Source: Arthrobacter alpinus (GTDB taxonomy: Bacteria > Actinomycetota > Actinomycetes > Actinomycetales > Micrococcaceae). From it: a DNA stretch of 64,000 nucleotides. Numbering within the stretch: the stretch's first letter is position 1; every line of letters starts with the position of its first letter. Below are positions 5,066-31,403 of this stretch, piece by piece. The stretch is taken from NCBI RefSeq assembly GCF_001445575.1, contig NZ_CP013200.1, positions 2,108,001 through 2,172,000 on the forward strand, read 5' to 3'. Below the pieces are notes generated by a model, which was given only the letters and a program-made list of their open reading frames with translations, was not told where the DNA came from and did no database searches. The translations under genes were made by a program, and so were the position numbers.

Positions 5066-5925
5066 CGTTCCCGCTGGTCCTTGATCTTGCCGCGGACGGA
5101 GTCCCCGTCGCGGTGGCCTGCCGGGTGCTCGGCTTCTCCAAGCAAGCCTTCTACGCATGGAAGGCGGCTCCGGTGACGGACCGGGATTGGGCTGATGCGC
5201 ATCTGATCAACGCCGCGCTAGATGTCCATCGCGACGACCCGGCGTTCGGGTACCGGTTCATTGCTGACGAGTTGAAGGACCAGGGACTGGCTGCGGGTGA
5301 GAACCGGGTCCAGCGCCTGTGCAGCAGCCAGCGAATCTGGTCCGTGTTCGCCAAGAAACGCGGCCTGACGCGCAAAGCGGGCCCGCCCGTCCATGACGAC
5401 CTGGTCAAGCGGGACTTCACCGCAACGGCACCCAACCGGCTGTGGTTGACGGACATCACCGAGCACCGCACCGATGAGGGCAAGCTGTACCTGTGCGCAA
5501 TCAAGGACGTGCATTCGAATCGAATTGTCGGCTACTCGATTGATTCACGCATGAAGGCGTCTCTGGCCGTTGCAGCTCTGCGCAACGCGGTGTCGCTAAG
5601 GTCGCCACAGGGGGCGGTGGTGCATTCGGATCGTGGCTCTCAATTTCGTTCCAACGCCTTCGTCCGGACCCTGAAGAGCAACGGGCTGACTGGGTCGATG
5701 GGGCGGGTGGGTGCGTGTGCTGACAATGCCGCCATGGAGTCATTTTTTGCGCTGCTGCAGAAGAACGTTCTGGACCGGCAGCGCTGGTCCACGCGGCAGG
5801 AACTGCGGCTGGCAATCGTGACCTGGATCGAGAAAACCTACCACCGGAAACGCCGACAACGACGACTTGGCCGGCTAACACCGATCGAGTTTGAGACAAT
5901 GAATACCGGCCTCGAAGCCGCCTAG
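5062..5925 (+). CDS. IS3-family transposase OrfB (DDE catalytic subunit)
   Basis: The 287-residue protein has an HTH_21-like N-terminus (HRDDPAFGYRFIADEL) and an rve integrase core with the DDE triad visible: WLTDITEH (first D), VVHSDRGSQF (second D) and NAAMESFFALLQKN (E). It catalyses cut and joining of the IS ends and is translated in the -1 frame relative to orfA, with an overlapping start. Full length and apparently functional, so the element may still move. Confidence 0.94.
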   Translation: MTFPLVLDLAADGVPVAVACRVLGFSKQAFYAWKAAPVTDRDWADAHLINAALDVHRDDPAFGYRFIADELKDQGLAAGENRVQRLCSSQRIWSVFAKKRGLTRKAGPPVHDDLVKRDFTATAPNRLWLTDITEHRTDEGKLYLCAIKDVHSNRIVGYSIDSRMKASLAVAALRNAVSLRSPQGAVVHSDRGSQFRSNAFVRTLKSNGLTGSMGRVGACADNAAMESFFALLQKNVLDRQRWSTRQELRLAIVTWIEKTYHRKRRQRRLGRLTPIEFETMNTGLEAA

Positions 5926-5967
5926 AAACACTAAACCCCGAGAGTCAATGAAACCCGGGGCAGTCCC

Positions 5968-6780
5968 GATCGAGTAGTTTTTTGAGTGTGCGTCCCCGTT
6001 TCCAATTAACAAGTTGAAGGTCACGGCTCGAAGTAAGTCGCGTTTGAACTCTTCCTCGTCAATGCTGTGAGGTGCTGCTATGGTCACCAGCCGGGTCAGG
6101 CGGGACGGTAATCCGGCCTGACTTTCTTCAAAAACATCGACTTCGTCAAGTGCAAGCGCCTGGAAGAAGTCTTCACTGTGCAGGACTTCGCCGCCGGGGG
6201 ATAAGTCGAATCGCGTTACGATCAGCGCTTCACGCCCAGCAAGGGTCTCAATGTAAGCCTCCGCAGCTCTTAGACCTGCGGTTCGGGCAACTCGAAGGGC
6301 CCATTCCTCAGAGGGAAGCAGATGAGGGCCAGTGTAGTCTGACGGCCTGACGGTCTTGACGAGATGGGTTGCCGGCAAGTTGTTACCAGGCAGCGCCCAT
6401 TCGTCTCCATTTCGCCTCAACATAACGGTGGACTCGATTGCGATCGCGAGGTCCTGATCTGTCAACGTGAGCGATTCGGGAAGCGCCTCGGCGAACTCAC
6501 CAGCGGGGCGCACCTGGACGGCCCCGGTGATACCTATTGTTGGCTTAGATCGGGCAATATCCCCAGGCAACAGTTTGTCAAAGTAGAGAGATACTTGCGG
6601 CCCGCCGATGGGTATGTCTGAGACAGGAAGAGACAAGGACAGGCAGGGAGAGTTTACACCGTATTCAGAGACGACGTCCGCGTCGTATTGAAAAGACAGA
6701 TCTGCATCGGAACGGGAAAGTACACCAACGTGGCGAGAATGGAGAAACACCTCGAATTTTGTACTCACCACTTGATCCAA
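5968..6780 (-). pseudogene. HipA-type kinase, N-terminal fragment (interrupted by IS3-type element)
   Basis: The gene begins with ATG at 6780. It has the HipA N-terminal subdomain (FEVFLHSRHVGVLSR, then NSPCLSLSLPVSD), a HipA_C kinase part (ALPGNNLPATHLVK, EEWALRVARTAGL) and the catalytic-loop motif LLIGNGDAHSKNYS, directly after which the IS starts. I do not see the S-x-AGAQ-x-K segment that normally carries the regulatory serine, so the protein may have been degenerate before insertion. No HipB-like antitoxin gene is found upstream; that space holds transposase debris. HipA kinases phosphorylate glutamyl-tRNA synthetase in characterised cases. The interrupted state suggests loss of function. 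Confidence 0.8.
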
Positions 6781-10702: not shown

Positions 10703-11318
10703 TTACCCGTCGCCAAAAGCCTGCAGTACCTCTGTGTTGTCGGGCGCTTCGTGCGTTTTCTGCACGTAGTGCTTGCTGGTGATCTTTTCGTTTGAGTGCC
10801 CGAGCTGTGCCGTGGCGGCGGCAATACCCTGGGTGTTGGAAAGGATCGTACCGACCGACTTCCTGAACGTGTGCGGCGTGATCCAGTCATACCCAAGGGA
10901 TTCTCTGACCTCTCGCCATTGCTTGCGAAAGCTATTTGGATCACGGATCGTTCCCACGCTGGAGGCAAAGACCATGCCAAGGTCGTTGGTTCGCGCAGTG
11001 TCGGATTGACGCTTGCGGAGGATTTCAACGGCGAAGGACGGCAGGAAGTACCTCTGCCGTGAGTTGGAACTCTTCGGATGGTCTTGAATCTTCAGGCCAC
11101 TTGTGCTTTTGATTATGATGACGGTCCCATTGACCGTCAAGGTGGGCTTTACTGCATCGAGGTCTACGTCCGTCCAGTGAAATCGCAAGGGCCTGGCTGA
11201 TGCGGGCGCCGGTGGCCAGCATAATGTCCACAACTTCCAGGATGCCCGTCACCGGCAGCCCGTCGGGACGCCTGGTCTGCTGCTGCCACGCATACACGCC
11301 CTTACCAAGGGTTTGACG
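10703..11318 (-). pseudogene. Decayed tyrosine integrase (N-terminus missing, frameshifted)
   Basis: It is closely similar to the C-terminal half of the intact integrase at 28203-29372. RKSVGTILSNTQGIAAATAQ, LGHSNEKITSKHYVQ and [11 protein letters not shown] are all present, including the H-x-x-R box and the GH motif. The catalytic-arginine region (MLATGARISQALAIS) is in another frame. An extra T near 11180 (GCGATTTCACTGG here, GCAATTCACTGG in the intact copy) breaks the gene. Everything upstream of the KGVYAWQQ region is gone. It is a remnant of an earlier integrative element of the same family. Confidence 0.85.
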
Positions 11319-13004: not shown

Positions 13005-13784
13005 TTAGCTCAGTTTCGTTACTCCCTTCCCCGCCAGGGCTTGGGTGAGCCTGACGGAGTCACCACTGGTCTGGCAGACATGGGCATGGTGCAGGAGCCG
13101 GTCAACTGTCGCTGTCGCCAGGGTTTTAGGCATGAGCTCGTCGAAGCCGGCCGGGTGCAGATTGGAAGAGATCGCGATGGAGCGTTTCTCGTAGGCGGCA
13201 TCCACGACCCGGTAAAGTCCCTCGGAAGCATCAGTACCCACGGGCAACAAACCAATATCGTCAACCACCACCAAATCAGCGCGCAGCACCCGGGTGATAG
13301 CTCTAGTGACACTGTCATCGGTGCGGTGGGCGCGGATGAGCTGACCGAGGTCCTCGAGCCGGAACCACACCACACGTAAACCTTCTTCGACGGCTTGCTG
13401 GCCCAGGGCCTCGAGGAAGAACGTTTTCCCGGTACCGGAGGGCCCGCAAACGACAAGGTTTTCCCCACGCCTAATCCATTCCAGAGTCCGCAGGGCTTGC
13501 TGAGTCGGGGCCGGGATCGAGGAAGCGGCCGGGTCCCACACATCGAAAGTTTTCCCGGTCGGGAACCCGGCCGCCTTGCGCCGGGTGGCGAGCATCGAGG
13601 CGGCCCTGCCACGGATTTCCTCGGCAAAGAGGGCTTTGATGACCTCTACTGGTTCCCAGCGCTGGGCACGGGCGGTAGCGATGAGTTCCGGCGCCAAGGT
13701 GCGGGCGTGGGGCATCTTCAAGGAACGCATCATCGCCTCGAGGTCCTGTGGCAGTGCCGGGGCGGTGGTGTTGATCGGGTTCAC
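13005..13784 (-). CDS. istB: IS21-family helper ATPase IstB
   Basis: The 259-residue AAA+ protein has Walker A GPSGTGKTFFLEALG at about 110-125 and Walker B ADLVVVDDIGLLP. The N-terminal helical part (LEAMMRSLKMPHARTLAPEL) is typical of IstB. It regulates target choice and activates the IstA transposase. The start overlaps the istA stop (13781-13784), so the pair is translationally coupled. It looks intact. Confidence 0.95.
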   Translation of the reverse strand: MNPINTTAPALPQDLEAMMRSLKMPHARTLAPELIATARAQRWEPVEVIKALFAEEIRGRAASMLATRRKAAGFPTGKTFDVWDPAASSIPAPTQQALRTLEWIRRGENLVVCGPSGTGKTFFLEALGQQAVEEGLRVVWFRLEDLGQLIRAHRTDDSVTRAITRVLRADLVVVDDIGLLPVGTDASEGLYRVVDAAYEKRSIAISSNLHPAGFDELMPKTLATATVDRLLHHAHVCQTSGDSVRLTQALAGKGVTKLS

Positions 13785-15307
13785 TGCTTTACCTCACTGA
13801 CGGTGGCGGTTGTTGTGGTGATCGCGGCCCAAGCGCCGGTGCCCTGAGTCAGGGAGGTGCCCTCGTTCGCGGTGTGGGTGGTGATGTTGGCCCGTCCTGC
13901 TTGCAGGATTGAGGAAAGATCTCCATGGGCGAACCGTCCATGAATCGCCGCAGTCCCTAGGGCCCGGTCAACATCAATGACACCGGCGATCTTCGCCAGA
14001 GAAACAGCCTCAGCCATTTTCACGTTGATCCGTTGAGTGCCAACCGCGGCTGCTTCCTTGAGCCAGGTAACGGCACCACCACCGATGGCCAGGAACTCCG
14101 CCTCGGCCCCGGTACGGGCCCTGGGTGTGTAATCGCCCGGGATCCTTTCCACATACCCGGGAAAGTGATCGTCATTGATTGCAGGGCTCCCTGGTCTGGC
14201 ACTGCCGTGGCGGGCGACTTCCACCGGGCCATTCACGCCGTGGTGCACGATGACGACCTTTTCATCCGGGCCAGCCCCGTGGGAACGAACGAACACCCGC
14301 TGCCCCAACAGGTGGGACGGCACGGAATACATGGCGTTGTTGAACGTGACCATGGGCGTGTTCGGTGGCACGGTGCGTGCTAATCCAAAAGAGACCGTGT
14401 GGGCGTCATCGGGAACCCGATGCAGGCGCAACACCTCCTCAGCAAGCATCAACGCCGGTTTACGCTTGGTGCTGCGGTGCTCACGAGCATTGATGTGGGC
14501 CATGAACTCCTCACACGCGGCCTCCACCTCAGCGAAGGAACCATACGCCTCGCGCAGGTTCGTGTCCTTGGGCACGATGTCAGCCTTAGCGACCTTTACC
14601 GCGTTCTCCACCCCGCCCTTGGAAGCAGGATCCGCCGGCTGACACGTCAACACGGTCACCCCGTAGTAGCGGGCGAAATCCACGGTTTGCAGGTTTCTCA
14701 CCGGTACCCCGGCCACGTGGGAGACAGTTACCGTCTTCTCGTTGTCAGTGAGGATATAAACCGGAGCCCCGCCAATAATGCGGAAACAGCGATCGAGAGC
14801 AGCGAACACAGATGGTGCTGTCCGGTCCCGTAGCGCGATGACGATCCGGAATCGTGACCAGGCCAGCCACGCCACGAACAACACCGTCTTCACACCATCG
14901 ATGGAGGGGCCGTCGCCGAAATCGTACTGTAGCCAGCCGCCAGGTTCTGTGATCCAGGGGCGGTGCACGCGTACCCGGCCGAGCTTCCACGCGTCTTTGA
15001 CTTGGGCTATCGCGCGGCGGGTGGAACGCTCCGACCCTTCGAAACCCATGCCTACCAGTTTCTGGTGGGCGACATCAGCCCGGATCCGGCCACGCGTCTT
15101 TTCTACGAGTTCCTCGATCTTGGGCAGGTACTCATCAGTGATCTTTTCCCTGGATACTGGTTCCGCCAAAGGCTTGCCGGCAGTGCGGGCGGCGACGTGC
15201 TTGGCTACGGTGTGGTGCGAACAACCCGCGAGGACTGCCGCGGCGCGAAACGACTTCGTAAGATCGTACGCTTCAAGAATTTCCATGATTTCTCCGTCAG
15301 ACTTCAT
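13781..15307 (-). CDS. istA: IS21-family transposase IstA
   Basis: The 508-residue protein has an N-terminal HTH (MEILEAYDLTKSFRAAAVLA, then GCSHHTVAKHV) and an rve core with WLQYDFGDGP (first D), VYILTDNEKTV (second D) and PASKGGVENAVKVAKAD (E). The C-terminal Mu-type domain follows, with MYSVPSHLLGQRV. It performs strand transfer with help from IstB encoded just downstream. Full length. Confidence 0.95.
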   Translation of the reverse strand: MKSDGEIMEILEAYDLTKSFRAAAVLAGCSHHTVAKHVAARTAGKPLAEPVSREKITDEYLPKIEELVEKTRGRIRADVAHQKLVGMGFEGSERSTRRAIAQVKDAWKLGRVRVHRPWITEPGGWLQYDFGDGPSIDGVKTVLFVAWLAWSRFRIVIALRDRTAPSVFAALDRCFRIIGGAPVYILTDNEKTVTVSHVAGVPVRNLQTVDFARYYGVTVLTCQPADPASKGGVENAVKVAKADIVPKDTNLREAYGSFAEVEAACEEFMAHINAREHRSTKRKPALMLAEEVLRLHRVPDDAHTVSFGLARTVPPNTPMVTFNNAMYSVPSHLLGQRVFVRSHGAGPDEKVVIVHHGVNGPVEVARHGSARPGSPAINDDHFPGYVERIPGDYTPRARTGAEAEFLAIGGGAVTWLKEAAAVGTQRINVKMAEAVSLAKIAGVIDVDRALGTAAIHGRFAHGDLSSILQAGRANITTHTANEGTSLTQGTGAWAAITTTTATVSEVKQ

Positions 15308-17785: not shown

Positions 17786-18008
17786 GTGTCGATTGTTCCA
17801 TCAGGACAGAAAATTGTCTTTAGATGTCGAAACTTATCGGACCCATCATCCAATGGAGAACTGGAGCTGACGTGCGGCAGGTCGGCCGTGCGCGGTGCAG
17901 CCCGATAGTCAGGATTTGAATCGTGAGTGGCCGAGTCGGCTTTTTGGTCTAGCCCATTGTTCGACCCTTAGTGAGGGCCTAGGCTCAAAAGACCTAAAGG
18001 AGTCCTTC

Positions 18009-21000
18009 ATGCAGCAACACCTCGACCGCTACAGTACGCTCCGCGTGTTCGGTCACATCAGTTTGCACGACAAGTACCAAAGCTTGGTCGGGCAGCTTCT
18101 GAAGCTGATCGACGAAAAGGGTAGGGTGCGCGTTTCGACGCTGGAGTCCGAGCTGTTTCCACTTCATGACGATGCTGCGGCGGACAACTTGATAAGTCAA
18201 TTGGTTCAAGTGATCAACGATGCAGCGGAAAGCTCTGGTGTGCAGTTGACGGCGCGCATCACCGCGTACAAGAATGCTGGCGTAATCAGTCGCTGGGTCT
18301 GGTTCCAGGGCTCTTCACAAATGCCGGGACCATCGCATTGCGAAAACCAGAACAGTATTCACCCTGAGCGATTGGTCGTGGATCAGCAGGGCCCCGTGAC
18401 GGGGGACCCCGTGATCATGCTGTTGACATTCAACCAGCACGAGACTCAGGCCGTCTTCAAAGAATTTGTGCAAAATCAGCGGGTGCCAGTGGCTACGGCG
18501 AGTCCATACTTCGAGTTAGGCCGCCACGGTGGAGCCCGAGTCATGCTGCGTATCTCACGCCAGGGAAGCGCGGCGGCCCAACAGGCTGCGGAAGAATCCA
18601 TTCGGCTATTCTCGCCCAAAGCCCTGATAGGCGTCGGCATCGCTTTCGGAGTAGACGAGCAAAAGCAAAGCATTGGAGACGTCTTGGTCAGCGCGGCTGT
18701 CAACGACTACGAACTCCGGAAGGTGAACAAGTTGGGCGTTGTCATTCCACGAGGGCATACCCCACCGCATCGCCCTTGCTGGTTGATCGCTTCAACGGGC
18801 TGAAGCACGTGTATTTGCCTGACGGCAGTGATGGTTTCCCGAAGATACAGGAGGGAGTGCTCCTGTCCGGTAACGCTCTGATCGACAACATTGACTATCG
18901 CCAGAGTTTGATCGAGTTGGCTGGGACCGAGGTCATCGGTGGTGAGATGGAGGGGCGTGGCCTGCACGAATCGGCCCTTTTCCACGACGTCCATTGGATT
19001 ATTGTCAAGGCGGTCTGCGACTTTGGAGATGGGAACAAGGGCGCTGAGTCGAAAGAGCGTGATCAGAAACTTGCCGCTAAGCACGCTGCACTCGTCGTGC
19101 ACATGGCCCTAGATGGGGAAGGGCTGTACCAGCCGAATCTCGACGCTCGGCGCCCAGCGCCAGTGGGACCCCCTCGGCTGCCGCCCTTCATAGACGCAGA
19201 CGGCCCTTGGGTGCCTAACCGTGGGACCACACCAGTCGTCCTGTGGACGGCGACACAGCGCCAACTCGGACAGCCGGCAGCGTGGACGTCATGGACCACC
19301 TGCTGGCGTGGGCCCATGCCCCAGCCTCCTCCAGCGCGTTCGCCCTGTTGGGGGAGTACGGCATGGGCAAGACCGTCACCTTACAGAGATTCGCGCGCCA
19401 CCTGCGCAAACTCCGGCCCAAAGACCCGACGATACCCCTGTCGTTGTACTTGGACCTGCGAGAAGTGACTGGCCTTGAGCACGGCGTCCCTACGTTGGAC
19501 CAGATCGTGACTGAAGTGATGAAGCGAAGCTGGCCGAACGGCGACCTTCCTGCATACACCATGGAGAATTTCGAGAGCTGGATCAGCCAACCCGCGGTCG
19601 TGATTTTCGACGGTTTGGACGAGGTGCTGGTGAAGCTCTCCGCTGGTGACGGGCAGACCTTCACCCGCACTCTCCTCAGCCTGGCCCCGCGACTTGGGGA
19701 TGCACGTTGCGGCCGTCTGAAGATAATGGTCTCCTGCCGGACCGAGTACTTCCGGACGCTGAGCAACCAGCTTAACCACTTCACGGGTCACCGCCCACCT
19801 GGGCACATGCAGGCTGACTCCTCCAGCGTCCTAATTCTTCGCCCTTTCGAAGATGGAGAGGTTCGCACTTATCTCAGTACTGTTTTCCCCGGTCAGGACT
19901 TGAACAAGATTCTCGAGACGATTCACAGTATCCACGGCCTTGACGAACTCACCCGGCGCCCTTACACGCTGTCTCTCGTCGCCCGCTTTCTGCCCGAGAT
20001 CGAATTGGACCGCGCAGCCGGCAAAACGGTGTACGGCGTGTCCCTGTATAGACGTACGGCAAATGCATGGTTGGAGCGTGACGACGGCAAGCACCAGATT
20101 AGGGCCGAAGATAAGCAGATGTTTACTGCCACGCTGGCAGCCCGTATGTGGGCGGAACGCGAAACATCCCTGCCTATCCGTGTCATTGAACGGTGGTTCC
20201 GGGAATGGCTCGACTTGGAGCCCGGACTACGAAGCCGATATGAACACTTCCACCCAGATCGGTTGGAGGAGGACTTGCGTGCTGCCACTTTCCTCACCCG
20301 AACGGACGTAAACGAAAGCAGTACTTTTCGTTTTGCCCATACCTCGTTGCAGGAGTACTTCCTTGCCATGCACCTCGTAGAAGCAATCCGGAGTAATCGC
20401 CCCGAACATTGGGCGCTCCCAACTCTGAGCTATGCGACCCTCGACTTCATCGGCCAACTACTGGCAGAGGCTAGGCAACCCAAGCTCTTGACCACTCTTG
20501 CATCGTGGTCAGCACCGTACCGGGTCCAGGCCAGTGAGAACTTACTGGCCTACGCGGTGAGAGCCATTGGTCGTGGATGGCCGGTCCCAGTCCTGCGCGG
20601 ATTGGACATGAGAGGGGCACAACTTGATAACCTGAAGATCCCAGCATTTGGCACTTTCCACTCACCCCTCGATCTGTCCGGAGCGCAGTTCCGAGGCGCG
20701 TCGCTTCGACATGCAGCACTGTACAATGCGAATCTCGACGGAGCGGACTTTCAGGGTGCCAACCTGTTTCAGGCCTACTTCCTTAGATGCTCCCTCAACT
20801 CGACACGCTTTGTCGCTGCGGACCTAGTCAGTACAGTGTTTCGTGACTGCATTCTCACGGTCACTGAGTTTGACGATTCGGACATCCGAGGAGCCCAGCA
20901 GCTACGGTGTCTCGATCCAAACCCATCTTTCTTGGCAGCCCCTGCACGATTTCCGGCAGCACAATTGCCTTCGGATCGCCTCCGCTGGAACGCGATCCAT

Positions 21001-22932
21001 TCGAACTTGGCCGTGTTTTCCCCAGATGGGACTGTATTGGCCACTGCCGGTAACGATGGAACGGTCCGGCTGTGGGAGGTCGGCTCCGGGGCGGAGCGAA
21101 CAGTCTCCGAGGGCCACACCGGGTGGGTTCGTTCGGCGGTGTTTTCCCCTGATGGGTCACTGGTGGCCACGGCTGGGAATGATGGAACGGTCCGGCTGTG
21201 GGAGGTCGGCTCCGGGGCGGAGCGAACAGTCTTCGAGGGCCACACCGGGTGGGTTCGTTCGGCGGTGTTTTCCCCTGATGGGTCACTGGTGGCAACGGCT
21301 GGGAATGATGGCACAGTTCGGCTTCTCGAAACCCGCACAGGGGCGGAGCGAACCGTCTTCGAAGGCCACACTGGTACGGTTCGCTCGGTCGTTTTTTCCC
21401 CTGATGGGTCACTGCTAGCCACGGCTGGGGACGATGGAACGGTCCGGCTGTGGGAGGTCGGCTCCGGGGCGGAGCGAACAGCCTTCGAGGGCCACATCGG
21501 GTGGGTTCGTTCGGCGGTTTTTTCCCCTGATGGGTCACTGGTGGCCACGGCCGGGGACGATGGCACAGTTCGGCTTCTCGAAACCCGCACAGGGGCGGAG
21601 CGAACCGTCTTCGAAGGCCACATTGGTGCGGTTCGCTCGGTCGTGTTTTCCCCTGATGGGTCACTGCTGGCCACGGCAGGGGACGATGGCATAGTTCGGC
21701 TTCTCGAAACCCGCACAGGGGCGGTGCGAACCGTACTTATTGGACACGGGGGCTGGGTACTTTCGGCCGTGTTTTCCCCGGATGGCGCTCTGTTGGCCAC
21801 GGCCGGGGACGACGGTACTGCCCGACTTTGGGAGACTGGAAATGGGGTGGAGCGAACCGTACTTATTGGACACGGGGGCTGGGTGCTTTCGGCCGTGTTT
21901 TCCCCGGATGGCGCTCTGTTGGCCACGGCCGGGGACGATGGTACTGCCCGACTTTGGGAGACCGATACTGGGGTGGAGCGAACCGTCCTCACTGGCTATA
22001 CCGGGTGGGTTCGATCGGCCGTGTTTTCCCCAGATGGGGCTTTGTTGGTCACGGCTGGGGACGATGACACGGTCCGGCTGTGGGAGGCGGACACCGGGGC
22101 GAAGCGAACCGTCCTCATTGGCCATGCCAGCGGAGTCCTTTCCGCAGGATTCTCCCCTGACGGGGCTTTGCTGGTCACGGCTGGGGAAGACGGCACGGTC
22201 CGGCTGTGGGAGGCGGACACCGGGGTGGAGCGAAGGGTCTTTGTTGGCCATACTGGCTGGGTTCGTTCGGCCGCGTTTTCCCCTAATGGGGCTTTGTTGG
22301 CCACGGCCGGGAATGACGGCACGGTCCGGCTGTGGGAGGCGGACACCGGGGTGGAGCGCAGGGTCTTTGTTGGCCATACTGGCTGGGTTCGTTCGGCCGC
22401 GTTTTCCCCGGATGGGACCACGTTGATCTCAGCAGGAGACGACGGCACGGTCCGGCTGTGGGAGGCGGACACCGGGACAGAGCGAGTGGCCCTTATTGGC
22501 CACACAGGCGGGGTTCGTTCGGCCGCGTTTTCCCCGGATGGGACCACGTTGATCTCAGCAGGAGACGACGGCACGGTCCGGCTGTGGGAGGCGGACACCG
22601 GGACAGAGCGAGTGGCCCTTATTGGCCACACAGGCGGGGTTCGTTCGGCCGCGTTTTCCCCGGATGGGATCCTGCTTGCTACGGCGGGGGACGATGGCAC
22701 AGCTCGACTCTGGGACTTGAGAACAAGCAATGCGCTACTAGCGTTTGGGTTCGTCAGTAGAGACCCGTTGGACCTTGGTGGATACGCAGTCTGGCGCCCC
22801 GCCACAAACAAGCTCCTTGAGATCTCAGATGAAGGTTGGCGAGCTCTGCTATGGGAACGGCATGAAACCGGCGGGCACACCGCGAGGCTGCCAGCGGAAT
22901 ACTTCAGATCTGAAGTCATCACTTCGTGCTAG
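18009..22932 (+). pseudogene. PNP-NACHT-pentapeptide-WD40 STAND protein (NLR-like, two -1 frameshifts, possibly intact)
   Basis: Start ATG 18009 follows AAAGGAG at the right spacing. Reconstructed length is about 1641 residues. Order: ~130 unassigned residues; nucleoside-phosphorylase/MTAN-like domain (~133-370) with VIMLLTFNQHETQAVF and GGEMEGRGLHES, then VKAVCDFGDGNK; NACHT NTPase (~430-700) with Walker A LLGEYGMGKT and Walker B VVIFDGLDEVL; an LQEYFLAMHL-type NACHT helical region; pentapeptide repeats (~867-968; ANLDGADFQGANL); then 14 WD40 repeats. This is the architecture of STAND anti-phage ATPases (Avs/bNACHT type), where the C-terminal repeats sense a trigger and the N-terminal enzyme is the effector, here probably cleaving nucleosides or nucleotides. 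Frame breaks at the C run 18760-18763 and near GGG 19223-19225 are each mended by one added base. Without mending the gene gives three pieces. Confidence 0.85.
20986..22741 (+). repeat. Fourteen 126-bp tandem repeats coding for WD40 blades
   Basis: From repeat 2 at 21112 to repeat 14 at 22624 the spacing is exactly 126 bp with no indel. Each unit encodes GHTGWVRSAVFSPDG, a TAG[DN]DGTVRLWE core and a short variable tail. Units 12 and 13 are identical from ACCACGTTGATCTCAGC to GTGGCCCTTATTGG. Fourteen blades fit two seven-bladed propellers. The near-identity at DNA level shows recent unit duplication or gene conversion. Confidence 0.93.
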
Positions 22933-23445: not shown

Positions 23446-23483
23446 CCAAAAGGGGGAGCTCGCGCTGCTGAAAAGGGGGAGTG
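23446..23483 (+). repeat. Paired G-rich att-like repeat, copy D
   Basis: ACCAAAAGGGGGAGCTCG then GCTGAAAAGGGGGAGTG repeats the pair at 12724-12761 with the same spacing. The truncated coding frame that follows begins exactly at its edge, as if a recombination there removed the 5' part of a gene. Confidence 0.45.
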
Positions 23484-23746
23484 TCAACGCATACCGCAAT
23501 CGGTTAATACAGTTTGCTAAGGAGAAACTCGGCAAACGCCTACAGGGCAAGGTCATGGGTGACACCCTAGCGAGCTATGGGAAGCGCATCACCAATCTTG
23601 ACTCCATGGCGAACAAAGGCGTACACAGTGATGTCACCGCTGCTGAAGCTGAGCAGTGCGTGATCTGGAGCTTCATGCTTGCCGCTGACCTTCTGCGCAT
23701 TTCGGATGGAACTTCGGCAGACTTGGCGCCAGTGAATGATTTCTGA
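23483..23746 (+). pseudogene. C-terminal remnant of an uncharacterised protein
   Basis: The frame is open from the G-rich repeat and reads NAYRNRLIQFAKEKLG, then a segment with LDSMANKGVHSDVTAAEAEQ, CVIWSFMLAADLL and a stop at 23746. The KGVHSDVT-x-x-EAEQCVI pattern is one I associate with the C-terminal ends of larger actinobacterial proteins, some linked to abortive infection, but this is memory and not proof. No start with a ribosome-binding site is present; an ATG at 23555 would give 63 residues. It is best read as a gene truncated by recombination at repeat D. It overlaps the next gene start by 11 bp. Confidence 0.5.
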
Positions 23747-24542: not shown

Positions 24543-25658
24543 TCATCGCGAAGGGAGGAGTCCGATGAGTGTGCAAGAACTAATAGAGCCATCTAGGGAC
24601 GCCAGAGCATTGAACTGAAGCTTCCCGTGCACTGAGGTCTGAACCTCTCCGTAGTGGTCGTTCATGTCGCCATCAGAAACCCAGTATTCGTTCGGGATCG
24701 AGTGCATCTCGCCTTTGTATACGGGACTTTCAGCGGAAATTTCTGCCTCAACTTCGCAAATCAGAACCGTATCCGTGGAGTCACCGATTTCAGATTCTGT
24801 ATAGGTCAGCGTGTCGAAGTCGATCTCCAAATGCGCAATCTTTGGACTCTCAAACCACTCGGGGAATTGGACATCAAGTGCTTCTGCAACCTCCAATAGG
24901 ACATCGAAGTCGCTCCACAGCACGTCGTCCGCTGCTCGCTCGATAGCGTTTGCAAGATCGGTATCGAATTTGGCGTCCCGGGCATTCTCTGCTCCTTCTG
25001 CCGTTGAAGGTCGTGTTAGGTCTAGCTTTGCAATGAATTCGTCGAGGGTATTAACCAAATGCACCGAAAGATTGTTGTTGATTAGCTTGACTTCATCTAT
25101 GAGATTTGTGGCCAGCTGGTGCTTATTTTTTTTGCTCACCGCAAAGTCGCTGCTGTTATTTGTGACAAAATACAACTCTTCAAGACCTGGCTCACTTCTA
25201 ACCAAGTCCAGCAAGCTATGCCAAATCAGCGTGTCTCTGTAGCCGGAGCCATCTTCGGAGAATGGTTTCACAAACCCCAACTCTTTTTGAACGACCACTG
25301 AGTGGGATACGTCAGGTAGGGGAAGGACTCGACCTCCATGCTCGCGGATTCTTGTCGTCGCATTGAGGATGAACTTTTCCGCTTCCGCGTTCGCCTCTTC
25401 CTGGAAGCGCTCATGAAATGATTTCAATTCATCTGATACGTCCGTGAGCCTGATTGACGACGCTGCTCGTTTTATTTCTGTGGCCGCGTGGTCAAGACTG
25501 ATTTGAACTTGACGGTTGGCTTCGAGGAGGCAAACCTCAGGCACGGCCAGCAAGAACTGTCCACTGCGTGAGGCGTTCAGGACAAGTGTCCACTGGAAGC
25601 CTTTCAGCTCCGTGCTTCTACGCTGAAGCGTAGTCGTGTCAACTACCATTGCCCGCAT
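24543..25658 (-). CDS. PIN-domain (DUF4935-like) protein
   Basis: Of the 371 residues, the N-terminal 190 match a PIN-like ribonuclease fold: VVDTTTLQ at the very start (first Asp), VPEVCLLEANRQ (Glu), GYRDTLIWHSLL (Asp) and ELYFVTNNSSDF (last acids). The C-terminal half (~200-371) contains an acidic beta-rich part (HLEIDFDTLTYTESEIG, CEVEAEISAESP). PIN_8/DUF4935 proteins are predicted metal-dependent RNases found in many accessory and defence loci. No antitoxin-like partner is adjacent. ATG 25658 is chosen because the catalytic Asp follows five residues later; a second ATG at 25649 is possible. Confidence 0.75.
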   Translation of the reverse strand: MRAMVVDTTTLQRRSTELKGFQWTLVLNASRSGQFLLAVPEVCLLEANRQVQISLDHAATEIKRAASSIRLTDVSDELKSFHERFQEEANAEAEKFILNATTRIREHGGRVLPLPDVSHSVVVQKELGFVKPFSEDGSGYRDTLIWHSLLDLVRSEPGLEELYFVTNNSSDFAVSKKNKHQLATNLIDEVKLINNNLSVHLVNTLDEFIAKLDLTRPSTAEGAENARDAKFDTDLANAIERAADDVLWSDFDVLLEVAEALDVQFPEWFESPKIAHLEIDFDTLTYTESEIGDSTDTVLICEVEAEISAESPVYKGEMHSIPNEYWVSDGDMNDHYGEVQTSVHGKLQFNALASLDGSISSCTLIGLLPSR

Positions 25659-28202: not shown

Positions 28203-29372
28203 TCATTCATCGCCGAATGCTTGCAGTACCTCAGTGTTGTCCGGCGCCTCATGTGTCTTCTGGACGTAGTGCTTGCTGGTGATCTTCTCGTTTGAATGGC
28301 CGAGCTGCGCCGTGGCAGCAGCAATGCCCTGGGTGTTGGCGAGGATGGTACCCACTGACTTACGGAACGTGTGCGGGGTGACCCAGTCGTAACCCAAGGC
28401 TTCTCGGACTTCGCGCCATTGCTTACGGAATCCGTTGGGATCACGGATTGTCCCCACACTTGAGGCGAAGACAAGTCCCAGGTCATTGGTTCGTGCAGTG
28501 TCAGTCTGACGCTTGCGGAGCATTTCGACGGCAAATGACGGCAGGAAGTACCTTTGCCGAGAATTGGAACTCTTCGGATGGTCCTGAATCTGCAGCCCAC
28601 TAGTGCCCTTGACTTTGATGACGGTACCGTTGATCGTCACCGTTGGTTTTTCGGCGTCGAGGTCCACGTCCGTCCAATGAATGGCAAGTGCCTCCCCGAT
28701 GCGGGCGCCGGTGGCCAGCATGAAGTCCACGACGTCGAGGATGTCCTTCTCGTGTAGTCCGTTGGGGCGCCCGGTGGGTTGCTGCCACGCATAGACGCCT
28801 TTGCGAAGGGCGATAACTTCGTCCAGGGTCAGGGCTCGGACTTCCTTCACCACGATGGGGATTTTGGCGACTTCTCGTAGAGGGTTGGCGCTGATGGCGC
28901 CGTGCCGTGTGGCGAGGCTGAGCATCCCGGAAAGGATGGTCTTGCACATCTTCGCGGTCGTGGCGCCGCTATTGGTTCGGATGGTCTTGAGGAACCTGTC
29001 GAGGGAATTGACATTGGCTTCTCTGATAGTCAGCTCACCGGTGCCTGGCAGGATGTGGGTGTCCAGGAGTTCCCGATACCGTTTGCTGGTGTTGGCAGCC
29101 CGGCCCAGGTCTTCAAATTCAGCCCACCAAATCCGTGAAAGCTCGCGCAACTGCATCTCCGGTCCGATCTCGTCCTCATTGGCTGGGATCAAAAGCGTGA
29201 GCTTGTGAATCAGTGCCGCCTCTGCCTTTGGGCCAGACGGTCCCCACGCTTCGTACCGGCGGACTGCACCATCGAAGGAGCGAAATTTGGCGCGGGCACG
29301 CCAAATTTTTGGCTTGAGTTGCTTGCGAGTGATCTGCCCCCAAGTACCCAATGGCAAACGCGCTCTAGGCAA
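28203..29372 (-). CDS. int: Tyrosine-type site-specific integrase (intact copy)
   Basis: This phage/ICE-type integrase of about 390-399 residues has an N-terminal arm-binding part, a SAM-like core-binding domain (DTHILPGTGELTIREANVNS, then SGATTAKMCKTILSGML) and a catalytic domain with the R-H-x-x-R-H-Y set visible: ATGARIGEAL (R), TPHTFRKSVGT (H-x-x-R), LGHSNEKITSKHYVQ (H and Y). The start is uncertain: a TTG at 29372 or an upstream start near 29402 inside the excisionase gene are both possible. It follows and overlaps that gene, forming an xis-int operon. Two decayed relatives lie at 10703-11318 and 26672-26713, so elements of this family have entered repeatedly. Confidence 0.9.
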   Translation of the reverse strand: MPRARLPLGTWGQITRKQLKPKIWRARAKFRSFDGAVRRYEAWGPSGPKAEAALIHKLTLLIPANEDEIGPEMQLRELSRIWWAEFEDLGRAANTSKRYRELLDTHILPGTGELTIREANVNSLDRFLKTIRTNSGATTAKMCKTILSGMLSLATRHGAISANPLREVAKIPIVVKEVRALTLDEVIALRKGVYAWQQPTGRPNGLHEKDILDVVDFMLATGARIGEALAIHWTDVDLDAEKPTVTINGTVIKVKGTSGLQIQDHPKSSNSRQRYFLPSFAVEMLRKRQTDTARTNDLGLVFASSVGTIRDPNGFRKQWREVREALGYDWVTPHTFRKSVGTILANTQGIAAATAQLGHSNEKITSKHYVQKTHEAPDNTEVLQAFGDE

Positions 29373-29586
29373 AGTGATCCTCTGTCGTCGAGAGCCAATC
29401 ATTCAGGTCGCTGCGGCTGATGCGCAGGTGTCGGCCAATCCGGTGGGCCCGTGGCCCAAGGTGTTTGACGCGCCACTGGTAGAAGGTCTGCTCTGGGATC
29501 TGCAGTTCCCGGCAGATGTCTCGTGGGGTCAGCCATTCCTCCGCGATTGCTGCGGTGGAAGGGATATGGCCAATTTGCTCGCTCAT
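29365..29586 (-). CDS. xis: Excisionase-like helix-turn-helix protein
   Basis: The 73-residue protein has an HTH_17/MerR-like fold: EEWLTPRDICRELQIPEQTF, YQWRVKHLGPRAHRIG, then LRISRSDLNDWL. These proteins bend att DNA and direct tyrosine integrases towards excision. ATG 29586 follows GAGGAGATT, a good ribosome-binding site. The 3' end overlaps the likely integrase start, so the two are translationally coupled. Confidence 0.88.
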   Translation of the reverse strand: MSEQIGHIPSTAAIAEEWLTPRDICRELQIPEQTFYQWRVKHLGPRAHRIGRHLRISRSDLNDWLSTTEDHFA

Positions 29587-30123: not shown

Positions 30124-30236
30124 GGTTATCTGACGGTGCTGGTTGACTGTCATGCGCGTTGAGATTCATCTCCTGATTGCCTCACGTTAGTCAGATGATC
30201 TGCCTGCCGACGTTTTGTCTTGGTAGTGATATTGCC

Positions 30237-31403
30237 ATGGCACCTTCCGTCCTTACTTTCATGCTAAGCCGCGCTGTGCATCCTTCGACGGGCGACGCGA
30301 TGCTGGTGATCGAATCATCCGAGGGTGACATTCATGAGGAGGCAACGCGCTGGTTGCGGTTCCTTGCCGCGGTGGGGAAGTCGCCGAACACCATCCGAGC
30401 CTATGGACTCCGCCTTGCGCCTTATCTGAGCTGGTCTGTCGCTTCCGGTAGAGACTGGCGAAAGGTGCGCCTCACTGATCTCGTCGAATGGAAAACCGTT
30501 GTGGTTGCGACTCCCTGTTCAGGCGCGAAGGGTTTGCCGCGTCCCCGGAGGCCGGCCACGGTGGACGCTTGGATGACCGCTGTGGTCGAGTTCTTTAAGT
30601 GGGCCGAAGCCGCCGCCGTGGTTGAGCCTGCTTTGTCCGGGTTGATCTATGAACCCCGGTACATTGCTGCCGGCGTCTATGGTGGTGAACAGGGACGGAT
30701 TCGCCAGGTAAAAGTCCCTGAACTGCAGGCCCGCAGCCACCAGGAGACTGCTTCCCCGGAGTGGATCGAATTCCCGCGAGCCCGGGCAGTGCTTCTGAAT
30801 CTTGAGTTGGTCGCTCGAGACCGTTTCCTGGTCGACTTGTTGTTCTTCACAGGCCTGCGGATTGGTGAGGCACTGGCACTCTTCCGCCAGGACGTCCATT
30901 TCCTGGCCGAAAATTCCGGCCTGGGCTGTCGGATTCGGGGCCCACATATCCATGTCCGCTCGAACGAGGTCCTCAACGGGGCTCGGGCGAAAACCGGGCC
31001 TCGTTGGGTACCGGTTCCTGACCGGGTGGTGTTTTCCTATGAGGACTACCTTCTGGACCGCCGGGACATCCTGGGGCTCGACAGCAACCCTCACGTTTTC
31101 GTCAATCTCTACCGAAGTTCCCGCGGCACTGCCATGAGCTACGCGGGCGTAGTGGATCTGTTCCAACGCATCTCTGTATCCGTCTCGAGCAGGATCCGTC
31201 CTCACATGCTCCGCCATACTCGGGCCACAATGTGGCTACGAGGCATCGACACTCCACGGCTGGATCTGGACACCGTGCGGGTCCTGCTTGGACACGCTTC
31301 ACTGGAAGCTACCAGCATATATGCCCATTCACGGGCCGAGGATCTGCGCGCAGCCGTCAGTAACGCTTCCCTGCCCGGCATCGGTGACGAGAAGGGCCGC
31401 TGA
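30237..31403 (+). CDS. tnpA: Tn554-type tyrosine recombinase (TnpA-like)
   Basis: The protein (about 388-408 residues depending on start; ATG at 30237 or 30261 are alternatives to the 30177 start) has a core-binding domain (GKSPNTIRAYGLRLAPYLSW) and catalytic motifs FFTGLRIGEALALF (R), RPHMLRHTRATMWL (H-x-x-R) and VLLGHASLEATSIYAHS (H and Y). Its position next to the left end and its overlap with the following recombinase gene (TGATGG at 31401-31406) match TnpA of Tn554-type elements, which act together with TnpB for site-specific transposition. It looks intact. Confidence 0.82.
   Translation: MAPSVLTFMLSRAVHPSTGDAMLVIESSEGDIHEEATRWLRFLAAVGKSPNTIRAYGLRLAPYLSWSVASGRDWRKVRLTDLVEWKTVVVATPCSGAKGLPRPRRPATVDAWMTAVVEFFKWAEAAAVVEPALSGLIYEPRYIAAGVYGGEQGRIRQVKVPELQARSHQETASPEWIEFPRARAVLLNLELVARDRFLVDLLFFTGLRIGEALALFRQDVHFLAENSGLGCRIRGPHIHVRSNEVLNGARAKTGPRWVPVPDRVVFSYEDYLLDRRDILGLDSNPHVFVNLYRSSRGTAMSYAGVVDLFQRISVSVSSRIRPHMLRHTRATMWLRGIDTPRLDLDTVRVLLGHASLEATSIYAHSRAEDLRAAVSNASLPGIGDEKGR

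What the first reader, a model, noticed from the sequence alone, without database searches (positions are those of the whole stretch)
18009..22932. Candidate anti-phage system: PNP-NACHT-pentapeptide-WD40 protein
A single gene unites a nucleoside-phosphorylase-like effector, a NACHT NTPase, a pentapeptide block and 14 WD40 blades. STAND ATPases with NACHT are established phage-defence proteins, and phosphorylase-superfamily domains act as nucleotide-depleting effectors in some defence systems (Detocs) and occur on NLRs of fungi. The four-part order here, with a pentapeptide spacer before a double propeller and an unassigned ~130-residue N-terminal part, is one I do not know as a described system. 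It lies in a mobile islet beside a HAD protein.
Basis: partly seen in the sequence, partly recalled or inferred. Interest (0 to 1): 0.85.

Follow-up and report, generated by a model that had tools for sequence, protein, structure and literature searches.

The report
Broken bacterial NLR with nucleosidase effector
An Arthrobacter-like bacterium carries a frame-broken copy of a widely scattered bacterial immune-receptor-like family whose killing domain can be exchanged and whose sensor repeats vary at the same sites as those of fungal self/non-self receptors.

Summary
Intact single-chain relatives exist in many genomes, so the architecture is a real family. Of 61 related loci 58 have NNH6; between NNH6 and NACHT lies a PNP-fold domain (36) or TIR_2 (17). 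The 'unassigned' N-terminus is the described Pfam domain NNH6. The 'phosphorylase' is nearest to MTA/SAH nucleosidases, with the invariant active-site positions kept. The effector label changes at least twice on a quick NACHT tree. In 31 proteins with similar blades (window included), variation between blades concentrates at positions known to diversify in fungal HET-D/E; in the window copy the contrast is weak. PNP-NACHT, TIR-NACHT and highly repetitive WD40 proteins are each in print, so I file a new variant of a known kind. Most likely mechanism: the propeller clamp senses a ligand, NACHT oligomerises, and the clustered nucleosidase drains adenine nucleotides, probably ATP. Anti-phage activity is inferred, not shown; this copy is probably inactive.

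The parts
18009..18803 (+). ORF1 from the supported ATG: NNH6 domain plus the N-terminal half of the PNP-fold nucleosidase
18030..18320 (+). NNH6 (PF22737, NACHT N-terminal helical domain 6); modelled in relative L003 as helix-helix-(short strand)-helix-helix-strand-strand, a winged-helix-like order
   Evidence: E 1e-18; model of L003
18426..18692 (+). PNP-fold nucleosidase, N-terminal half; motifs TFNQHE, GVGIAFG, GDVLVS; the Glu of TFNQHE is invariant in 38 of 38 PNP-type relatives
18761..18785 (+). First frame change (approximate zone); relatives are continuous here
18761..19225 (+). Stretch of the second frame that matches relatives: C-terminal half of the nucleosidase; motifs GGEMEG and VKAVCDFGDG, whose second Glu and first Asp are invariant in 38 of 38
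19190..19243 (+). Second frame change (approximate zone), in the linker before NACHT
19243..20600 (+). NACHT NTPase module (Walker A 19351-19374, Walker B 19606-19623); end approximate
20600..20900 (+). Pentapeptide-repeat block (run of 14 steps); ends approximate
   Evidence: many short strands in the model
20977..22740 (+). 14 WD40 blades of 42 residues each, aligned as two seven-bladed propellers; neighbouring blades up to 95% identical in DNA
22741..22932 (+). C-terminal tail with a divergent blade-like stretch, to the stop codon

Best explanation
The window holds a recently broken copy of a bacterial NLR-type receptor of the NNH6 family. In intact members, the double WD40 propeller (with the pentapeptide block as spacer) recognises a protein ligand, most likely of a phage or a host protein altered by one. 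Binding frees the NACHT NTPase to oligomerise. This brings together the NNH6-tethered nucleosidase domains, whose relatives (MTA/SAH nucleosidases) are dimeric enzymes (recalled), so that the clustered effector cuts the base from adenine nucleotides, probably ATP, and stops the infected cell. Shown here: domain identity, kept active-site and NTPase residues, exchange of the effector for TIR in the same position, variation of the blades at the top-face positions, absence of NNH6 from the 22 other genomes of the genus searched. Inferred: ligand, activation by clustering, substrate, phage defence. This copy, split over three frames, very probably makes no full-length receptor.
Against: No experiment on any member of the family that I know of. 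This copy is broken, and it keeps a smaller share of near-invariant columns (179 of 199) than 48 of 51 relatives, so it may be decaying. Top-face variation is a general trait of highly repetitive WD40 proteins (PMC5587647, passages), so it is no proof of immune function; within the window copy the contrast is weak (pN/pS 0.54 against 0.36). The same fold serves MTA/SAH salvage, futalosine hydrolysis and phosphorylases, so ATP as substrate is a guess. Defence-gene neighbours were scanned for 127 of 377 flanking ORFs without a control set.
Confidence: 0.6

Rival explanations
1. The family is a self/non-self or regulated-cell-death receptor in bacteria, like fungal HET-D/HET-E, recognising variants of a host or neighbour protein rather than phage proteins.
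For: Same order effector-NACHT-WD40, similar blades, double propeller, and the same blade positions vary (PMC12222747 section 17 and passages, PMC1805685 passages).
Against: The host is a single-celled genus without known cell fusion (recalled); the gene is sporadic, in a mobile island, which fits defence better than a housekeeping recognition trait.
Confidence: 0.15
2. The PNP-type protein makes a nucleotide-derived signal for another effector instead of draining ATP, as proposed for PNPase-superfamily domains in conflict systems.
For: Prediction in PMC7159879 (passages): release of a base from a nucleotide or nucleoside as second messenger.
Against: No receiver gene in a fixed place beside the PNP-type loci: the families that recur in three or more loci are ordinary ones (ABC-type ATPases by eye, histidine kinases, response regulators) at changing distance and strand; TIR, a direct NAD-cleaving effector in many systems (recalled), takes the same slot.
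Confidence: 0.12
3. The two frame changes are sequencing or assembly errors and the window copy is in truth an intact gene.
For: Active-site and NTPase motifs looked for are all kept; 179 of 199 near-invariant columns kept.
Against: Genome completeness 99.99% and long intact ORFs around it argue against many errors; broken copies also occur in L006, L014 and L024, though L014 is a metagenome assembly; damaged copies of repeat-rich receptors are known (PMC9218822, PMC1805685, passages).
Confidence: 0.25
4. Recoded expression: the frames are joined by programmed frameshifting.
For: All three pieces stay conserved.
Against: The 51 full-length relatives are single chains without any such site, and I saw no obvious slippery heptamer in the two zones when reading (by eye).
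Confidence: 0.03

Closest known systems
Bacterial NLR-related (bNACHT) and Avs/STAND anti-phage proteins
   Same: Tripartite effector-NACHT-sensor plan (PMC12169576 passages).
   Different: NNH6 in front of a nucleosidase, pentapeptide spacer, double WD40 propeller; I found no tested member. NCBIfam's NACHT anti-phage protein EruA model gives only 24.2 bits against a cut-off of 1000.
Cap17-type ATP nucleosidase effectors (Detocs, CBASS, pAgo, DRT8, NLR-like systems)
   Same: PF01048 fold as effector; PMC10952713 (passages) lists Cap17 in 'NLR-like systems', with (d)ATP degradation; PMC10197012 (passages) calls the bacterial PNP_UDP domain an immune-related ATP nucleosidase.
   Different: The SLOG domain PF18178 listed there with Cap17 is not among the families found in the 61 N-terminal parts; here the enzyme sits between NNH6 and NACHT in one chain.
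Fungal PNP_UDP-NACHT-WD40 and HNWD (HET-D/HET-E) NLRs
   Same: PNP_UDP-NACHT-WD40 exists in fungi (PMC4986451 passages); similar 42-residue blades, double propeller, same variable positions (PMC12222747, PMC1805685).
   Different: Bacterial; NNH6 and pentapeptide parts added. Sequence kinship to the fungal proteins was not measured.
TIR-NACHT bacterial proteins
   Same: TIR on NACHT proteins is described (PMC10952713 passages).
   Different: Here TIR replaces the nucleosidase behind a constant NNH6; in six loci a separate TIR gene lies upstream.
MTA/SAH nucleosidases (MTAN)
   Same: Fold and catalytic positions.
   Different: 41.7 bits against the NCBIfam equivalog cut-off of 169: not a salvage MTAN by that test.

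Membership tests
NNH6 family (PF22737) | Match over Pfam's gathering score | tested here: met
   68 bits against 27 in ORF1; 58 of 61 related loci at E <= 0.001
Bacterial NLR-related / NACHT receptors | Central NACHT NTPase with Walker A and B | tested here: met
   GEYGMGKT and FDGLDE in the window; Walker-A-like motif in 68 of 68 loci, Walker-B-like in 52 of 68 by a simple pattern
Bacterial NLR-related / NACHT receptors | N-terminal effector and C-terminal sensor in one chain | tested here: inconclusive
   Met in intact relatives; in the window the effector is separated from NACHT by frame changes
Bacterial NLR-related / NACHT receptors | Protection against phage | not testable with these tools
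   needs bench work
Cap17 / ATP nucleosidase effectors | PF01048 nucleosidase domain | tested here: met
   Relatives: 36 of 61. Window halves: E 5.7e-5 and 0.011, each under the cut-off
Cap17 / ATP nucleosidase effectors | SLOG domain PF18178 (listed with Cap17 in PMC10952713) | tested here: not met
   Only NNH6, PNP_UDP_1, TIR_2 and TIR were found at E <= 0.001 in the N-terminal parts of 61 loci
Cap17 / ATP nucleosidase effectors | Cleavage of ATP | not testable with these tools
   needs enzyme assay
Detocs | Three-gene system with partner genes in fixed places (recalled) | tested here: inconclusive
   Here the nucleosidase is fused to NACHT. Ordinary histidine kinases lie in the flanks of six loci (L010, L014, L020, L021, L029, L037) and response regulators of three, at changing distance and strand; no Detocs profile was tried on them one by one
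Fungal HNWD receptors | HET domain at the N-terminus | tested here: not met
   PNP or TIR instead; HET is not among the families found
Fungal HNWD receptors | High internal conservation of WD40 blades with variable positions at the propeller top face | tested here: met
   31 of 31 proteins with such blades, window included; spacing scan best at the expected register; pN/pS higher at these codons in 18 of 18 genes. The window alone shows it weakly
MTA/SAH nucleosidase (equivalog) | Score over NCBIfam cut-off | tested here: not met
   41.7 bits against 169 for L003
EruA | Score over NCBIfam cut-off | tested here: not met
   24.2 bits against 1000 for the NACHT part alone

The most novel reading that the evidence does not exclude
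A bacterial receptor family with a plug-in effector slot: a constant NNH6 domain (winged-helix-like in the model) and a constant NACHT flank an exchangeable proximity-activated nucleotide hydrolase (nucleosidase or TIR), while a double WD40 clamp diversifies by blade amplification and selection at the same top-face codons as fungal allorecognition NLRs. In one set of members the TIR enzyme has moved to a separate upstream gene and the built-in TIR has become a scaffold. This would be a fast-evolving bacterial recogniser convergent with, or ancestral to, fungal HNWD receptors.
Probability: 0.4. Interest if true: 0.75.

Novelty: new variant of a known kind. Interest (0 to 1): 0.55.

Why it matters
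PNP-NACHT-WD40 receptors were described from fungi (PMC4986451) and PNP effectors from bacterial defence (PMC10952713). A bacterial family that joins both, exchanges nucleosidase for TIR in one fixed slot, and varies its blades at the HET-D/E positions offers a direct way to test how such receptors choose ligands and how clustering switches on two unrelated nucleotide hydrolases. Intact members exist in named cultured environmental bacteria, so it can be tested.

Tried and rejected
HAD_SAK_2 or DUF7019 as partner genes: no relatives (blastp E <= 1e-6) in the flanks held for 68 loci, many of them short contigs. Named-system filing: on the window pieces and seven relatives PADLOC gave, for the nucleosidase, only the PN-superfamily Effector and PDC-M60C profiles; on the window's third frame it gave HEAT-ARM_XIII (E 8e-45, over the WD40 blades) and a weak PDC-S20; for one of two TIR-type relatives ThsB-like and other TIR profiles. 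NNH6 fold: no convincing sequence relative in the PDB (best E 0.0011, a kinetochore chain, taken as chance); the structure search lists were filled by the nucleosidase, so NNH6 alone was not tested and the winged-helix reading rests on secondary-structure order only. NACHT and pentapeptide parts were likewise barely tested, whose list is filled by WD40 chains. Defence-island scan: 127 of 377 flanking ORFs of at least 160 residues (the first of three batches, less one fragment of the gene itself), PADLOC E <= 1e-10, 17 profiles matched, 16 of them in one ORF each (MADS, AriAB, Zorya, BREX, Septu, Gabija and others); ATPase models cross-match and no control was run, so it is only suggestive. Literature: ten searches; in their listings and the passages I read I saw no paper naming NNH6-PNP-NACHT-pentapeptide-WD40. 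The library lacks most subscription papers, and Kibby 2023 and Rousset 2023 were not held, so absence from print is not shown. My notebook entry overstated one point (all six built-in TIRs having lost the Glu); the report gives the corrected count.

Rows dropped: 7 of 68 loci left out of the N-terminal alignment (L006, L007, L014, L024, L051, L055, L060); 9 of 68 left out of the tree (these seven, L064, L069). The tree is a quick one without bootstrap, with four long end branches (L056, L061, L062, L063). PNP/TIR labels in the tree were given by motif and by eye, not by Pfam row by row; some TIR labels are degenerate domains that Pfam did not list. The blade analysis kept 31 of 179 proteins, chosen by repeat number and identity, with two near-copy pairs among them; the DNA count kept 18 of 69 genes, near-copies included. 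Proteins came from the best 120 of 830 hits, and only 7996 candidates were scored. In one search, 51 full-length relatives were searched but matches of only 16 printed. The register that maps fungal repeat positions onto these blades was first set from my recollection of the fungal repeat; it was then checked by the spacing scan and against the text of PMC1805685.
Full report
What is there. ORF calling shows three overlapping frames on the plus strand, 17895-18803, 18776-19468 and 19243-22932. An ATG at 18009 with AAGGAG just upstream is the likely start. Pfam finds NNH6 and the first half of PNP_UDP_1 in the first, the second half of PNP_UDP_1 in the second, and 14 WD40 repeats in the third. 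NACHT is shown by relatives and by the motifs GEYGMGKT and FDGLDE. A pentapeptide block of 14 steps precedes the propellers; 200 shuffles of the same stretch reached at most 5. The blades have a constant 42-residue period and neighbouring blades are up to 95% identical in DNA.

The copy is broken. 51 relatives of at least 1500 residues, each a single chain, were compared with the window by tblastn; in all 16 whose matches were printed the match changes frame in the window near 18.77 kb and near 19.2 kb. The invariant nucleosidase positions and the NTPase motifs that I looked for are still present. The window keeps 179 of 199 near-invariant columns, a share (0.899) below that of 48 of 51 relatives (median 0.961). 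I read this as a recently damaged gene, with sequencing error as the main rival. Damaged copies also occur in L006 and L014 (frame changes) and L024 (an in-frame stop), and intact copies exist in many genomes.

The surroundings. The host is Arthrobacter-like: the IS21 element matches Arthrobacter and Pseudarthrobacter plasmids in 5 of 5 matching records, and among 14 records matching another stretch 5 are of these genera; this is inference. NNH6 occurs in 1 of 98 genomes of the neighbourhood, the window's own, and in none of 22 others of the genus, and in 5 of 396 genomes of the phylum, its own included, 3 of them over the cut-off. The 2.7 kb downstream of the gene has only short, partial matches in 5 of the 22 other genomes of the genus. 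IS21 genes lie at 13005-15307, phage-integrase-family recombinases at 28203-29402 and 30177-31403, and a piece of a second copy of the first at 10703-11233. The HAD_SAK_2 and DUF7019 genes next door have no relatives (blastp E <= 1e-6) in the flanks of 68 related loci.

The family. A protein search gave 830 relatives at E <= 0.001 (best 120 listed), and one scan of species genomes gave 68 loci. Of 61 N-terminal parts, 58 have NNH6, 36 PNP_UDP_1, 17 TIR_2 and 4 TIR. So the segment between NNH6 and NACHT is exchangeable. On a quick NACHT tree of 60 rows (38 PNP, 22 TIR-like) the effector label changes 3 times (shuffled mean 18), and starred branches force at least 2 changes. The cleanest case is L013 (PNP) beside L017 (TIR), sister rows with SH-aLRT 100: 58% identity from just before NACHT on, 42% over NNH6 and the linker, and no match over the effector itself.

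A side branch. In six TIR-type loci a separate gene of 160-186 residues with a TIR_2 match (five over the Pfam cut-off, L057 below it) ends within 280 bases of, or overlaps, the start of the NNH6 gene. All six separate TIRs keep the Glu of the HELP-like motif in the alignment; in the built-in TIRs of the same loci it is missing from the aligned column in four of six, and in the other two (L054, L057) a Glu aligns beside a four-residue deletion. Among the 12 of 16 single-gene TIR types aligned, 11 keep a Glu there and L045 does not. This suggests that enzyme and scaffold have parted in these members, which do not form one clade on the tree. The role of this Glu as catalytic is recalled.

Neighbours. 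Families that recur in three or more loci's flanks are ABC-type ATPases (by eye, 7 loci), histidine kinases (6 loci, Pfam), response regulators and a mixed group with an EAL/GGDEF protein (3 loci each), all at changing distance and strand, besides the TIR gene above. I take the kinases as ordinary two-component genes; a link with Detocs, recalled as a two-component-like system, is not excluded.

How it works, and how sure. Ligand binding by the propeller clamp, NACHT oligomerisation, and activation of clustered nucleosidase is the best-supported reading by anatomy and by kinship to known NLR systems. Both alternative effectors, MTAN-like nucleosidases and TIR, are enzymes that work as assemblies (recalled), which explains how one slot can hold either. 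Shown: parts, conservation, exchange, variable sites, sporadic distribution. Inferred: ligand, substrate, defence role.

Known or new. PNP-NACHT-WD40 in fungi (PMC4986451), PNP effectors in NLR-like bacterial systems and TIR on NACHT proteins (PMC10952713), and highly repetitive bacterial WD40 proteins (PMC5587647, PMC9218822) are all in print; of each I saw passages, and of PMC12222747 also one whole section. The combination with NNH6, the PNP/TIR exchange in one slot, and the split TIR branch I did not find in ten searches of an open-access library, which cannot show absence from print. I therefore file it as a new variant of a known kind.

Noticed in passing
L036:6218-6724, L048:6463-6951, L054:1818-2312, L057:1461-2018, L062:6505-6984, L063:6099-6584: A separate TIR gene directly upstream of an NNH6-NACHT gene whose own TIR is degenerate: a possible two-gene version of the system.
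   Followed up: partly
L007:2687-5002: NNH6-NACHT-pentapeptide protein of 772 residues with only about 44 residues between NNH6 and NACHT: no built-in effector; upstream ORFs at 413-1471 and 1468-2286 not identified.
   Followed up: partly
L006, L014, L024: Other damaged copies of the family: frame changes in L006 and L014, an in-frame stop between NNH6 and PNP in L024, which lies in a genome with a second, longer copy (L058).
   Followed up: partly
   Followed up: no
30 of 68 loci L003-L070: The contig ends inside the gene, probably because similar blades break assemblies; the family is likely under-counted in short-read data.
   Followed up: no
L010, L014, L020, L021, L029, L037: Histidine kinase genes in the flanks of six loci, at changing distance and strand.
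   Followed up: partly
window 23448-23484: A 36-base element found again elsewhere in this genome and in other genomes of the genus.
   Followed up: no
window 10703-11233 and 28203-29402: Second, partial copy of an integrase-family recombinase, 82% identical in DNA; may mark island ends.
   Followed up: partly
window 5878-6780: HipA-like gene (HipA_C and Couple_hipA domains).
   Followed up: no
window 24543-25658: PIN_12 domain protein of 371 residues in the same islet.
   Followed up: no
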